The notes beneath the pieces are model-generated. The model was not told the DNA's origin and did not search any database. It worked only from the letters and a program-made list of their open reading frames with translations. Below, piece by piece: positions 2 to 15,738 of a stretch of DNA of 35,032 bases. Both the position numbers and the translations under genes were made by a program. Every line of letters begins with the position of its first letter. Within the stretch, counting starts at the first letter, position 1. Source of the DNA: a virus; IMG/VR virus record IMGVR_UViG_3300011270_000012, positions 1-35,032 of that record. One strand, 5' to 3'.

Positions 2-271
2 GAAGACGCTGCACACCGCGAACTGCACGAGGAGACAGGTGTTGAAGGCGTCACGATGCAATTCATCGGTATCTACGACGATCCAGAGCGTGATCCGCGT
101 GGCCGCTACGTGAGTGCGGCGTATGTGGCAGCAATCGGGGACAATGTGGTGCCGCGTGTCGAGGCGGGTGATGAGGCGGGTGATGCACGATGGTTTGCGC
201 TCAATGCGTTGCCAGCGGATCTGGCGTTTGATCACGCCGAAATTATTGGAATGGCAATGCGGCCATTTTAG
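2..271 (+). CDS. NUDIX hydrolase, C-terminal part (5' end outside window)
   Basis: The reading frame is open from base 2 and enters at the end of a Nudix box: residues read EDAAHRELHEETGVEG, matching the RE-x-x-EE-x-G core of the motif G-x5-E-x7-REUxEExGU. That helix carries the metal-binding glutamates that hydrolyse nucleoside diphosphates linked to another moiety. A following segment, RDPRGRYVSAAYVA, is typical of the ADP-ribose pyrophosphatase-like branch. About 89 residues are visible; the upstream half with the glycine and first glutamate is missing. The gene ends just before the noncoding block at 272-1119. It could be a host gene flanking a prophage or a phage gene; the substrate cannot be told from this fragment. 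Confidence 0.85.
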   Translation, partial: EDAAHRELHEETGVEGVTMQFIGIYDDPERDPRGRYVSAAYVAAIGDNVVPRVEAGDEAGDARWFALNALPADLAFDHAEIIGMAMRPF

Positions 272-303
272 TGCTCAGTTGCGGATAGCGGTACACTGAA
301 TGC

Positions 304-405
304 AGAGCATGCGATGTGTCCCTTCCGCAACTTCCCTTTCTTACTGGATACCTCAACGATCTCCTCAGTGACTTCCTCACCAAACACATCGCGTCTCTCT
401 TCGCT
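304..405 (+). ncRNA. Candidate structured small RNA, unit A
   Basis: A TACACT box at 292-297 would place transcription start near 304. From 304 a 5' arm (AGAG, bulged C, ATGCGATGTGT, to 319) pairs with ACACATCGC plus GTCTCT at 384-398, including a perfect 9-bp core GCGATGTGT/ACACATCGC. The enclosed loop is about 64 nt and pyrimidine-rich. The 3' arm is followed by CTTCGCTCG. No -35 better than a weak match is visible for this unit. Geometry matches units B-D. Function unknown; inferred from structure only. Confidence 0.4.
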
Positions 406-434
406 CGTATTGCGTACAGTGGTATACTACGGAT

Positions 435-520
435 GTGAGCGATTGAGGCTGAGAGTGCATTTTGCCTATCATCAAACAACACAACGTATCCACACCAACA
501 ATAATCGCTCACCTCTTCTT
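435..520 (+). ncRNA. Candidate structured small RNA, unit B
   Basis: TATACT at 423-428, with a weak -35 TTCGCT at 400-405 (17-bp spacer), predicts a start at about 435. GTGAGCGATT at 435-444 is exactly complementary to AATCGCTCAC at 503-512, a 10-bp terminal stem enclosing 58 nt. The 3' arm runs into CTCTTCTTT. The loop contains ATCAAACAACACA, close to the loop text ATCAACAACACA of unit C. This looks like a short RNA whose two ends pair; there is no coding signal in it. Confidence 0.45.
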
Positions 521-546
521 TGCTTGCGCCGCGTGCTATACTGCGC

Positions 547-607
547 GAAAGGGGCGTTTCCACGAATACATCAAGGGGGATCAACAACACACGCCTCTTT
601 TCTTTTT
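547..607 (+). ncRNA. Candidate structured small RNA, unit C
   Basis: TATACT at 537-542 predicts a start at about 549. GAAAGGGGCGT at 547-557 pairs with ACGCCTCTTTT at 591-601: 11 bp, including two G-U pairs, around a 33-nt loop. The 3' arm merges into TTTTCTTTTT, so the stem plus T-run also resembles an intrinsic terminator with an oversized loop. This is the clearest of the four units for RNA 3'-end formation. Confidence 0.45.
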
Positions 608-636
608 GCACACGAGACGAGCGGTATACTGAAAGG

Positions 637-697
637 GTGCAGTCTGATCTGGTTAATTTTCTCCATTCACGTTCCTGGGTTGGATTGCATACGTTTT
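637..697 (+). ncRNA. Candidate structured small RNA, unit D
   Basis: TATACT at 625-630 predicts a start at about 637. GTGCAGTC at 637-644 pairs with GATTGCAT at 683-690 (8 bp, two G-U) around a 38-nt loop, followed by ACGTTTTG. The stem is weaker than in A-C. The tail overlaps the -35 box (696-701) of the next promoter, so units are packed end to end. Confidence 0.35.
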
Positions 698-724
698 GCT
701 CGCATTATGAGCGCTTGGTATAAT
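696..724 (+). promoter_or_regulatory. Sigma70-like promoter TTGCTC-17-TATAAT
   Basis: The -35 TTGCTC lies at 696-701 and a consensus -10 TATAAT at 719-724 with a 17-bp spacer. It is the best-formed promoter of the block. No gene starts within 300 bases downstream. The expected transcript begins near 731, opens with TGTGTGTG at 728-735 (complementary to CACACACA at 783-790), and would run into the strong hairpin at 867-903. Confidence 0.6.
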
Positions 725-866
725 GACTGTGTGTGGCTTTGCATGGCGGTATTGAGGATGGTGGATGGTGGTGGCGCGAACTCACACACACGCCACAAGT
801 GAGAACCAGTAGACTACTTCATCACTTTCCCCACTTTCCACCTATGGTCCATGTCTTCACCTGATG

Positions 867-903
867 GTCAGCGCTATGGGATGCGTTCGCTTATGGCGCT
901 GAC
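867..903 (+). other. 11-bp stem-loop in noncoding block
   Basis: GTCAGCGCTAT at 867-877 pairs with ATGGCGCTGAC at 893-903 (11 bp, one G-U) around a 15-nt loop. No T-run follows, so it is not a standard terminator. It could be part of an RNA started at the 719-724 promoter, a protein-binding inverted repeat, or a processing site. Confidence 0.4.
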
Positions 904-1011
904 GGTCTGGTGGAGTCGCGTCGTGATGGCATGACAAACGGTGAGGCGGTAGTGGTGGCGAAAGATCCTCAAGCTTGTGTATCACAAATAGGCTTACAGA
1001 GCGGCTTTAGC

Positions 1012-1040
1012 TGTACATCCATGCTCAAAAGTGGTATAAT
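1012..1040 (+). promoter_or_regulatory. Promoter of the GIY-YIG nuclease gene
   Basis: TATAAT at 1035-1040 is preceded at 17 bp by TGTACA (1012-1017; four of six -35 consensus bases). A transcript from about 1047 would carry a leader of about 70 nt containing the hairpin at 1061-1090 and the ribosome site TTGGAGG at 1106-1112. Confidence 0.5.
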
Positions 1041-1119: not shown

Positions 1120-1995
1120 ATGGATAGTCTATCATCAAACACATCATCAAACAAGACTACACAAGAAACTACCTTCATTTATGGATTAGTCGATCCTAAT
1201 ACTCACTCGATCAGATACATCGGCAAAGCCAACGACCCCCATGTTCGCCTCTACCGCCATTTGAAGGAAAAATCTCACACTCACAAAAGTATGTGGCTAA
1301 GGAGTCTCAAAGAACGAGGACTTTCTCCTGAAATGCAGATCATCGAAGAAGTCCCCGTATTAGGGTGGCAGGCAAGTGAAAGGTACTGGATAAAGTATTA
1401 TCGTGAGCAGGGATGTGATCTCACCAACAGTACGGATGGTGGAGATGGTTTGCATGGATATGTCATCACAGAAGAGCATCGGGAGAAGCTAAGCAAGGCC
1501 GCTATCGGCAAAAAACGCGGACCTATGTCTGAGGAACAAAAGACTCTGTTTTCTTCAATTCGTAAAGGCAAGCCAAAACCAGCGCTATCAGTTTTATATA
1601 AAGGGAAACCTTTCCCAGATAAAGCATATGAAACGTTAAAAGAAAGACGTACAGGAAAACCTCTTTCGGAAGAGGTAAAACAAAAGATCAGTGACACTAA
1701 ACGAAGCAGGGGGATGCCTGAAGAAGAAAGGGCAAAATTGCGGGAAAGAAAACTTACAGAGGAGCATAAAGCAAAGTTGGCTGCATCCCGCCATGCTACC
1801 CCCGATTCCGAAGAAACCAGACTAAAGATGTCCCTCGCCCACAAGGGGCAACGCCACCCTCATTCAGAGCAGGCTAGAGAGAATATGAGATTGACTAGAC
1901 TTACGGCAAATGCGCGAAAGAGGGGCATGACCTTAGAGGAATATATGCTTGTAAGGAAGGAGTGTAACAAGAAGTATGTCAGTCGAGAACCCTGA
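1120..1995 (+). CDS. GIY-YIG homing-type endonuclease with NUMOD3 repeats
   Basis: A 291-residue DNA endonuclease of the GIY-YIG family, which makes site-specific nicks or breaks and often acts as a selfish gene in phages. The catalytic N-terminal domain (about 18-100) shows the GIY strand as IYGL (20-23), the YIG strand as YIGKANDP (33-40), the arginine in VRLYRHL, the metal-binding glutamate in ASERYW, and the asparagine of the LTNSTDGGDG end motif. Several NUMOD3-type DNA-binding units follow (TEEHREKLSKA, SEEQKTLFSS, SEEVKQKISDT, TEEHKAKLAAS). I chose ATG 1120 because TTGGAGG lies 7 bases before it; the longer frame upstream has no domain. It overlaps the small terminase by 20 bases, and its Lys-rich, AT-leaning codons suggest separate acquisition. 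Confidence 0.88.
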   Translation: MDSLSSNTSSNKTTQETTFIYGLVDPNTHSIRYIGKANDPHVRLYRHLKEKSHTHKSMWLRSLKERGLSPEMQIIEEVPVLGWQASERYWIKYYREQGCDLTNSTDGGDGLHGYVITEEHREKLSKAAIGKKRGPMSEEQKTLFSSIRKGKPKPALSVLYKGKPFPDKAYETLKERRTGKPLSEEVKQKISDTKRSRGMPEEERAKLRERKLTEEHKAKLAASRHATPDSEETRLKMSLAHKGQRHPHSEQARENMRLTRLTANARKRGMTLEEYMLVRKECNKKYVSREP

Positions 1996-2500
1996 CACCT
2001 TGACACCCTTACGCACGCGTAGAAGCGGTCAGCGTATGAATAGCCAGGAACGGAAACAGGTTCAGGATGTTTTTTTGATAGCATTCGCCGCGCATGCAAA
2101 TGTCTCTCGTGCGTGCGCGGTGGCAATGGTTAGTCGCACTCAAGTCTATGAGTGGATGAAGGACGCCAATTTTAAAACTCGGTATGGCATGGCGGAAGAG
2201 GATGCCAACGACGCGTTAGAGTACAGTGCGCATATCAGGGCCGTTGAAGGAGTCGATGAACCTCTTGTGTCAGTGGGCAAAATCGTCAGAGATGATAGCG
2301 GACAGCCAATAATGATGAAGAAATATAGTGATCAGTTATTAATTACTTTATTAAAAGCCAGATTACCACATAAATATAAAGACAAACAGCAGGTTGAATT
2401 ATCTGGCATAGCCACCTTAAAGACCGTTTGGGGCGGTGGAAGTGTTGATGATGTTGATGAGGTAAAAGGTGGCAGTGGCACAACTAAAACAATCGAATAG
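1976..2500 (+). CDS. Terminase small subunit
   Basis: A 174-residue protein just upstream of, and overlapping, the large terminase, with an N-terminal helix-turn-helix (about 25-60; NVSRACAVAMVSRTQVYEWM) of the kind that binds the packaging start site. The middle carries the sequence VDEPLVSVGKIVRDDSG and then YSDQLLITLLKARLPHKYKD, both typical of small terminases of the phage/Bacillus HTH type. The start at 1976 lies inside the end of the nuclease gene, with AAGGAAGGAG about 13 bases upstream; ATG 2036 is an alternative but lacks a good ribosome site. Family by domain and context. Confidence 0.82.
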   Translation: MSVENPDTLTPLRTRRSGQRMNSQERKQVQDVFLIAFAAHANVSRACAVAMVSRTQVYEWMKDANFKTRYGMAEEDANDALEYSAHIRAVEGVDEPLVSVGKIVRDDSGQPIMMKKYSDQLLITLLKARLPHKYKDKQQVELSGIATLKTVWGGGSVDDVDEVKGGSGTTKTIE

Positions 2501-3734
2501 ACCTATCACCATTGAACTATACACGCCCCACGCTGGACAGAAGCGCCTCCATCGCTCGCAGGCGCGGTTTCGCGTGGTCGCCTGTGGTCGTCGTTGGGGA
2601 AAAACGCTAGCATGCTGCAATGAAATAGTGAAATTTGCTTGTGAACGGCCCAATACCCTCTGTGCCTGGATCGCGCCAACTTATCGCCAGAGTAAGATTG
2701 CCTATCGCCTCATCAAAGCCGCACTCAAGGATATCATCGCACACACGTCGGATTCTGAACTACGCATTGAACTTCCGCAAGGTTCTGTGATGATGTTCTG
2801 CTCATCCGACAACTACGATGCCTTACGCGGGAACGGGTTACATCTCATTATCATCGACGAATGCGCAGATGTGGCAGAACAGGCATGGACTGAGGTGCTA
2901 CGTCCGTGTTTGAGTGATACACGCGGCAAGGCTATTTTTATTGGCACACCCAAAGGGCGCAATTTCTTCTATCGCTTATTCCTGCGTGGGCAAGATCCGA
3001 TGTACCCTGATTGGGAGTCGTTTACCGCGCCAACCTCGTCAAATCCCTATATTCCGCCAGAAGAACTCGTTGCTGTAAAGCGTGAATTACCAGCGAATTC
3101 CTACTTGCAGGAATATTGCGCCGCTTTCCTGGAGGAGAGCGCGGGTGTTTTTCGCAATATTGATGCGTGTGTACAGGGGGAGTTGTGTGGTCCCGAATCT
3201 CAGTATGACTATGTTCTTGGTTGGGACCCGGCCAAACACCAGGATTTTAGCGTGATGACGGTCCTCAACGCCCATACGATGCATGTGGATGCCTGGGAAC
3301 GCATGAACATCGTGGATTACACCGTGCAACTGGATCGAGTGCATAGCATGGCTACGCTCTACAACAATGCGCCAGTCATCATGGATGTTAGTGGCGTAGG
3401 TGATCCACTTCAAGAGCAGTTGAAGATGCGCGGCTTAACCGTTGAAGGCTATCTCTTTACCAATCTCAGTAAGAAGCTGCTGATCGAAGAGTTGGTGGTG
3501 AGTATTGAGCAGGTGGGCGTTACCTTCCCTGACTTGCCGATGCTTATTGGCGAATTGCGTACGATGGAGTACACGCTAACGCCCAGTCGGAATATTCAGT
3601 ATTCGGCCCCGCCTGGTCTGCATGATGATACGGTGATCTCTCTTGGTTTAGTCAATCATGCGGCTGGTAGGAGTAGTGGCGGCATGCTGCTCTTCAACGA
3701 TACCGATGTAACCGAAGCAAGCCCGTTCTGGTAG
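2469..3734 (+). CDS. Terminase large subunit (packaging ATPase-nuclease)
   Basis: The motor that pumps DNA into the head and cuts concatemers. The 421 residues show, in order, a Q-motif-like Gln24, Walker A GRRWGKT (40-46), Walker B LIIIDE (126-131, Asp130/Glu131 catalytic), coupling motif IGTPKGRNFFY (158-168), and the RNase H-like nuclease acidic residues Asp253 (LGWDPAKHQD), Asp306 (VIMDVSGVGD) and Asp386/387 (GLHDDTV). Length is usual for the family. GTG 2469 is the first start in frame; a second GTG six bases on (2475) is equally possible. It overlaps the small subunit by 32 bases, consistent with coupled translation of the holoenzyme. Confidence 0.95.
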   Translation: MAVAQLKQSNRPITIELYTPHAGQKRLHRSQARFRVVACGRRWGKTLACCNEIVKFACERPNTLCAWIAPTYRQSKIAYRLIKAALKDIIAHTSDSELRIELPQGSVMMFCSSDNYDALRGNGLHLIIIDECADVAEQAWTEVLRPCLSDTRGKAIFIGTPKGRNFFYRLFLRGQDPMYPDWESFTAPTSSNPYIPPEELVAVKRELPANSYLQEYCAAFLEESAGVFRNIDACVQGELCGPESQYDYVLGWDPAKHQDFSVMTVLNAHTMHVDAWERMNIVDYTVQLDRVHSMATLYNNAPVIMDVSGVGDPLQEQLKMRGLTVEGYLFTNLSKKLLIEELVVSIEQVGVTFPDLPMLIGELRTMEYTLTPSRNIQYSAPPGLHDDTVISLGLVNHAAGRSSGGMLLFNDTDVTEASPFW

Positions 3735-15605: not shown

Positions 15606-15724
15606 TGATGGCTAGACGACGGCAGCAGGACGGTGAGAGCGATGTCATATTGAGTGTTGGTGTTGTTCGGGTTGTGGGTTTGCATCGCTCAACCCGCCGT
15701 CTAGTACGGAAAATGTGGAAGTGA
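15605..15724 (+). CDS. 39-residue basic mini-protein, coupled to connector
   Basis: ATG 15605 overlaps the connector stop (TGATG), the usual layout for translational coupling. The product begins MMARRRQQDGESDVILSVGV, continues VRVVGLHRSTRRLVRK and ends MWK, with eleven Arg/Lys. It fills nearly the whole gap before the fibre gene and is followed by GAGGAGGAGG, that gene's ribosome site. No known family. Confidence 0.45.
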   Translation: MMARRRQQDGESDVILSVGVVRVVGLHRSTRRLVRKMWK

Positions 15725-15738
15725 GGAGGAGGAAGTAA

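What the first reader, a model, noticed from the sequence alone, without database searches (positions are those of the whole stretch)
284..710. Tandem array of four short RNAs, each with its own -10 box and paired ends
Directly seen: -10-like boxes at 292, 423, 537 and 625 are each followed, 5-7 bases after the box, by the 5' arm of a stem: 304-319, 435-444, 547-557 and 637-644. The matching 3' arms lie 33-64 nt further on (384-398, 503-512, 591-601, 683-690). Each 3' arm is followed by pyrimidine- or T-rich text. Arm sequences differ between units, so pairing rather than sequence is kept, as expected for RNA genes. Two loops share ATCAA(A)CAACACA. The expected transcript starts fall at the base of each stem. 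Four successive units with the same geometry and no protein gene suggest an undescribed small-RNA cluster at the edge of a phage late region. Function (decoy, regulator, host interference, packaging) is open.
Basis: partly seen in the sequence, partly recalled or inferred. Interest (0 to 1): 0.78.

Follow-up and report, generated by a model that had tools for sequence, protein, structure and literature searches.

The report
Tandem array of closed-end phage RNAs
Just upstream of this phage's DNA-packaging genes is a non-coding stretch with five (possibly six) short promoter-plus-folded-RNA units in a row, most likely a set of small RNA genes of unknown job; arrays of similar build, and clearly RNA genes, turned up in unrelated phages, so this may be a recurrent, overlooked phage feature.

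Summary
Window 284-800 has five, not four, consecutive -10 boxes on the + strand (292, 423, 537, 625, 719). Each is followed within 11 nt by the 5' arm of a stem that closes a 54-95 nt stretch, and each 3' arm ends about 21-29 nt before the next box. Only 1.7% of 871 comparable boxes have such a stem; combined shuffle p is 4.5e-9. A sixth, weaker unit (843, 858-912) is possible. Units 3-5 pair well only as + strand RNA. No ORF there looks coding. No Rfam family matches.

Best reading: a tandem array of small-RNA genes between a NUDIX gene and a homing endonuclease/terS/terL. Function is not shown: the loops pair with this phage's own late ribosome-binding sites no better than shuffles do. No transcript evidence exists, the window units lack proper terminators, and related phages lack the array, so covariation could not be tested in this lineage.

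A pattern scan of viral contigs found analogous arrays elsewhere. In Lacticaseibacillus phages (beside arpU), units carry terminators and closing stems with strong compensatory changes. L243 has four promoter/terminator units before groES. Rival reading: tandem promoters with structured leaders feeding the late operon.

The parts
2..271 (+). 3' end of a NUDIX hydrolase gene, upstream neighbour (runs off the contig)
   Evidence: Pfam NUDIX 4.9e-12; PHROG 1198
292..297 (+). -10 box of unit 1 (GCGG-TACACT)
   Evidence: sequence; box scan
304..398 (+). unit 1 RNA: closing stem 304-307/309-319 with 384-394/395-398; 64-nt C/U-rich, G-poor loop
   Evidence: fold -22.7 kcal/mol, z -2.6; stem p 0.002
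423..428 (+). -10 box of unit 2 (extended, TGG-TATACT)
431..516 (+). unit 2 RNA: closing stem GTGAGCGATT/AATCGCTCAC plus flanking pairs; A/C-rich loop
   Evidence: stem p 0.0007
537..542 (+). -10 box of unit 3 (extended, TGC-TATACT)
547..601 (+). unit 3 RNA: closing stem GAAAGGGGCGT/ACGCCTCTTTT, followed by CTTTTT
   Evidence: stem p 0.013
625..630 (+). -10 box of unit 4 (GCGG-TATACT)
637..690 (+). unit 4 RNA: 16-pair closing stem 637-652/675-690 with G.U pairs (folds far less well as the minus strand)
   Evidence: stem p 0.003
728..790 (+). unit 5 RNA: closing stem 728-742/776-790; G-rich loop; no T tract after it
843..912 (+). possible unit 6: weak -10 (TATGGT 843-848) and strong imperfect hairpin 858-912
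   Evidence: inferred
1012..1040 (+). ordinary promoter of the downstream gene (TGTACA-17-TGG TATAAT); no closing stem after it
1120..1995 (+). GIY-YIG / NUMOD3 homing endonuclease gene
   Evidence: Pfam; PHROG 314
1976..2500 (+). terminase small subunit gene
   Evidence: PHROG 4044, 1.7e-28
2469..3734 (+). terminase large subunit gene
   Evidence: Pfam Terminase_6N 3.4e-11

Best explanation
Window 284-800 is a tandem array of five (possibly six) small-RNA genes, each about 55-95 nt, transcribed on the + strand from its own -10 / extended -10 promoter. In each RNA the 5' end, which falls at the base of the stem, pairs with the 3' end and displays a mostly G-poor, unstructured loop. Most likely the closing stem protects the RNA ends and, with the pyrimidine-rich tail, helps end or process the transcript, while the loop is the working part, base-pairing with RNAs or binding a protein outside the phage's late region. 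Shown: boxes, stems, their geometry, lack of coding signal, + strand preference of units 3-5. Inferred: transcription, RNA ends, stability role. Guess: that the loops act on host or early-phage RNAs.
For: Five consecutive boxes with closing stems scoring 25-30 against a 1.7% background rate; Fisher p 4.5e-9; unique among 7,909 boxes scanned. With a start about 7 nt after each box, the predicted 5' end falls at or within a few nt of the first paired base. G.U-dependent stems in units 3-5. The two long ORFs across the region score -0.17 and -0.16 in codon usage, against -0.06 to +0.21 for the phage's genes. Analogues: Lacticaseibacillus phages carry 1-4 units beside arpU, each with extended -10, closing stem 4-6 nt later, 38-50 nt loop and intrinsic terminator, with 7 of 10 stem pairs showing changes on both sides (0/500 shuffles). 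L243 has four promoter/hairpin/terminator units in tandem. A ~61%-identical TerL relative, L002, has a -10-like box directly before a strong terminator hairpin upstream of its terminase genes.
Against: No RNA data. No intrinsic terminator in the window array, so discrete 3' ends are unproven. -35 elements are poor. The array is absent from the related contigs fetched, so no covariation test in this lineage. Whole-unit folding z-scores are modest. Loops do not pair better than shuffles with the phage's own translation starts or with each other. No sequence homology to the analogous arrays was found.
Confidence: 0.5

Rival explanations
1. A run of tandem host-type promoters that together drive the endonuclease-terminase late operon; the stems are structured 5' leaders or attenuators on long mRNAs, not separate RNAs.
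For: The array reads toward terS/terL and has no terminator; a further, good promoter (1012-1040) precedes the endonuclease gene. Tandem sigma-70 promoters with short spacers before a gene occur in other phages, e.g. L162 and L040, and in contigs such as L211 and L212.
Against: Each closing stem spans almost exactly from one transcript start to shortly before the next promoter, for five units running. The promoter nearest the gene (1035) is the one without a closing stem. In the Lacticaseibacillus and L243 arrays each unit ends in a terminator.
Confidence: 0.27
2. The RNAs are decoys or inhibitors of a host defence or host RNA-binding protein (RNA-based counter-defence); the array diversifies because targets vary.
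For: Loops and stems differ between units; in Lacticaseibacillus phages the units vary in number and loop sequence at one conserved site, as expected of accessory cassettes; relatives of the window phage lack the array.
Against: No target, partner protein or defence system identified; the host is unknown; no Rfam similarity.
Confidence: 0.13
3. A DNA-level element: inverted repeats near the packaging genes serve as a packaging (pac/cos) or recombination site.
For: Location about 1.2 kb upstream of terS; several long-range inverted repeats.
Against: Arms differ in every unit, so no common protein-binding site; units 3-5 pair well only as + strand RNA; -10 boxes would be unexplained.
Confidence: 0.06
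4. Chance coincidence of AT-rich boxes and inverted repeats in an untranslated stretch.
For: Individual folds are not exceptional (z -2.6 to +0.1).
Against: Joint placement p 4.5e-9; nothing comparable among 7,909 boxes.
Confidence: 0.04

Closest known systems
Short-RNA arrays beside arpU in Lacticaseibacillus phages (Lc-Nu, Lrm1, iLp84, PLE3, phiAT3, A2, R29.1, P7.1...), found here; no literature or Rfam entry found
   Same: Tandem units at a middle/late boundary, G(C/T/G)TATACT-type extended -10 without a -35, closing stem starting 4-6 nt later, unstructured loop of 38-50 nt
   Different: Those units have intrinsic terminators and conserved GGAG/CTCC stem ends, and read divergently from arpU; the window units have neither, and no sequence similarity was detected
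Tandem promoter/terminator RNA units in viral contig L243 (found here)
   Same: Four successive short units, each -10, 5' hairpin, short RNA
   Different: Each ends in an intrinsic terminator; stems are local hairpins; unrelated phage, array ahead of a groES-like gene
Paired-termini antisense RNAs (synthetic design; named in e.g. PMC3694883)
   Same: An RNA whose two ends pair and which presents a single-stranded loop
   Different: Engineered; the window RNAs are natural and no target is known
phi29 packaging RNA (pRNA) (from my own knowledge)
   Same: Phage small RNA with paired 5'/3' ends, encoded near packaging functions
   Different: Single RNA with conserved fold; no Rfam match here, and this phage has ordinary terS/terL

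Membership tests
Known RNA family (Rfam 15, 4227 models) | match at or above gathering score, or E<=1 | tested here: not met
   no match for the window nor for 240-1130 at E<=1
tRNA / tmRNA array | ARAGORN-detectable genes | tested here: not met
   0 genes
Stand-alone bacterial/phage small-RNA gene | own promoter | tested here: inconclusive
   good -10/extended -10 boxes but weak -35; not transcript-mapped
Stand-alone bacterial/phage small-RNA gene | defined 3' end / intrinsic terminator | tested here: not met
   terminator scan 0 found in 200-1200; only T-rich tails after U1-U4
Stand-alone bacterial/phage small-RNA gene | no protein-coding signal | tested here: met
   codon scores -0.17 and -0.16, below every phage gene tested; no Pfam match for ORF 314-802
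Stand-alone bacterial/phage small-RNA gene | structure conserved with compensatory changes among homologues | not testable with these tools
   no homologous array in relatives; shown only for the analogous Lacticaseibacillus units
Lacticaseibacillus arpU-side RNA arrays | intrinsic terminator and GGAG/CTCC stem ends | tested here: not met
   stems of U1-U5 all differ; no terminators
phi29-type pRNA | conserved pRNA fold | tested here: not met
   no Rfam hit
RNA anti-CRISPR (repeat mimic) | similarity to a host CRISPR repeat | not testable with these tools
   host unknown; no related bacterial genome found

The most novel reading that the evidence does not exclude
Tandem arrays of short, closed-end RNA genes with rapidly exchanged loops are a recurrent but undescribed phage feature, often at the start of the late region (this phage, Lacticaseibacillus phages, L243), working as cassette-like RNA effectors against host RNAs or defences.
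Probability: 0.22. Interest if true: 0.78.

Novelty: new variant of a known kind. Interest (0 to 1): 0.52.

Why it matters
Phage genomes are read mainly for proteins; short non-coding stretches at module boundaries are ignored. If arrays of individually promoted, closed-end RNAs are common there, phages carry a class of RNA effectors that no current annotation pipeline finds. The Lacticaseibacillus phages, which have isolated lysogens, make this directly testable in the laboratory.

Tried and rejected
Protein-coding reading of ORFs 314-802 (+) and 243-611 (-): codon scores non-coding. tRNAs and Rfam families: none. Pairing between units: not above shuffles for any pair of different units. Loop pairing with phage mRNAs: one strong-looking site near 15621 for unit 1, but at translation starts no loop beats 200 shuffles (p 0.16-0.47). 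Shared loop motif: not significant. Relatives through TerL, major capsid, NUDIX, TerS and portal: TerL relatives at about 60% identity (and MCP relatives at 57%) lack the array; portal and TerS found none. Host search in bacterial genomes: none. Similar DNA in phage and plasmid collections: none. Many hits of the tandem-box pattern scans are coding repeats or AT-rich repeats and were discarded. Four-chains in L194, L072, L172 and L192 were set aside (L194 and L192 inspected).

Full report
What the window is. A 35,032-base virus contig from IMG/VR. It holds, on the + strand, the end of a NUDIX gene (2-271), an 850-bp untranslated stretch, a GIY-YIG/NUMOD3 homing endonuclease (1120-1995), terS, terL, portal and the rest of a long late operon with head protease, major head protein, head-tail adaptor and tape measure. 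Its terminase has no close match among named phages (best 38.5%). Host unknown: no related bacterial genome was found.

Checking the observation. A fifth follows (box 719; stem 728-742/776-790), found by the repeat search and the box/stem scan. A sixth is possible but has a weak box (843 TATGGT, hairpin 858-912). With a start about 7 nt after the box, predicted 5' ends fall at or within a few nt of the first paired base. The 3' arm of one unit ends 21-29 nt before the next -10 box, so the array is compact. Stem scores 25-30 were compared with (a) 871 boxes of the same pattern in the window and related loci: 1.7% reach 25; (b) dinucleotide shuffles of the 125 nt after each box: p 0.002, 0.0007, 0.013, 0.003, 0.003; Fisher 4.5e-9; (c) 7,909 boxes in 200 loci, most of them fetched because they have tandem boxes: the window is the only chain of five, and the 4-chains there are coding or simple repeats where inspected, or show repeat-like spacing. 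Overall folding energy is not remarkable; the signal is where the stems lie.

Strand and coding. Units 3, 4 and 5 fold much better as + strand RNA than as its complement (-15.0 against -10.9, -16.5 against -5.9, -22.2 against -11.3 kcal/mol), because their stems use G.U pairs; units 1 and 2 do not discriminate. The two ORFs of 122 and 162 codons over the region score -0.16 and -0.17 in codon usage, while the phage's genes score -0.06 to +0.21.

Promoters and ends. Boxes: GCGGTACACT, GTGGTATACT, GTGCTATACT, GCGGTATACT, TTGGTATAAT. Three of five have the TGN extension; -35 matches are poor except 719 (TTGCTC, 17 nt). The scan for intrinsic terminators finds none. U1-U4 are followed by T-rich text, U5 is not. 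So separate starts are plausible; separate ends are not shown.

Relatives. Eleven viral contigs with TerL relatives, five of them at about 60% identity, and four with capsid relatives at 57% lack the array in the stretches held. L002, a 61% TerL relative, has a -10-like box directly before a strong terminator hairpin upstream of its terminase genes, and L006 has a divergent box and strong hairpin just upstream of terS. Covariation therefore could not be tested for the window units.

Arrays elsewhere. A pattern for tandem -10 boxes run over viral contigs led to L044, a Lacticaseibacillus-type prophage, and by DNA similarity to 42 named phages. At the 5' side of arpU, those read here carry one to four units: extended -10 (GCTATACT and variants), 4-6 nt, closing stem, 38-50 nt loop, intrinsic terminator; the terminator scan of L044 gives 4 in 420 bp against 0.5 expected. 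Stems differ by matched changes (GGAGGCC/GGCCTCC, GGAGGCAG/CTGCCTCC, GGAGATGCTT/AAGCATCTCC, GGAGTGT/ACACTCC): 7 of 10 pairs have changes on both sides, covariation score 0.409 against 0.125 in shuffles, 0/500. The arms were picked because they pair, which favours this result, but position is also fixed by box and terminator. No Rfam match. L243 is a further case: four promoter/hairpin/terminator units before a groES-like gene (the groES reading is from the translated sequence by eye), no match among named phages. L040 and L162 show tandem TTGACA/TATAMT promoters with closing stems ahead of a gene; these favour the rival reading of tandem promoters. None of these shares detectable sequence with the window, so they are analogues, not proven relatives.

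Mechanism. The most economical account is a set of small RNAs whose closed ends give stability and whose G-poor loops (9, 14, 18 and 5% G in U1-U4; U5 is G-rich) are the working part. Tests for self-contained targets failed: no loop pairs with the phage's own translation starts better than shuffles, nor do different units pair with each other. Targets, if any, lie in the host or in early genes not on this contig. Long tandem promoters with leaders remain a serious rival because no terminators are present.

Novelty. Phage small RNAs are well known; a tandem array of non-homologous closed-end units is, as far as the held papers and Rfam show, not described (open-access papers only). I rate it a new variant of a known kind.

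Noticed in passing
L044 9540-9895; L103-L110, L195-L198: Lacticaseibacillus phages carry 1-4 tandem short-RNA units (extended -10, closing stem, variable loop, terminator) on the 5' side of arpU; some annotated ORFs overlap the units.
   Followed up: partly
L243 about 1037-1393, - strand: Four tandem promoter/hairpin/terminator RNA units directly before a groES-like gene; two share AAACAAGCAA before the terminator.
   Followed up: partly
L040 2095-2480 (+); L162 4449-4650 (+); L211, L212, L221, L230, L234: Tandem TTGACA/TATAMT promoters with short spacers ahead of a gene; in L162 and L040 the transcript's start pairs with sequence at or just before the next -35.
   Followed up: partly
window 15606-15738: A 133-nt untranslated gap between the head-tail adaptor gene and the next gene with nested inverted repeats (CTAGACG..CGTCTAG, GAGCGATG..CATCGCTC) but no -10 box; its MFE is not above shuffles.
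   Followed up: partly
window 852-920: Very stable imperfect hairpin (-40 kcal/mol, z -6.9) without a T tract, between the array and the homing endonuclease.
   Followed up: partly
window 467-483 and 1127-1158: Unit 2's loop and the start of the GIY-YIG gene share CTATCATCAAACA-like text; window-wide matches are not above chance.
   Followed up: partly
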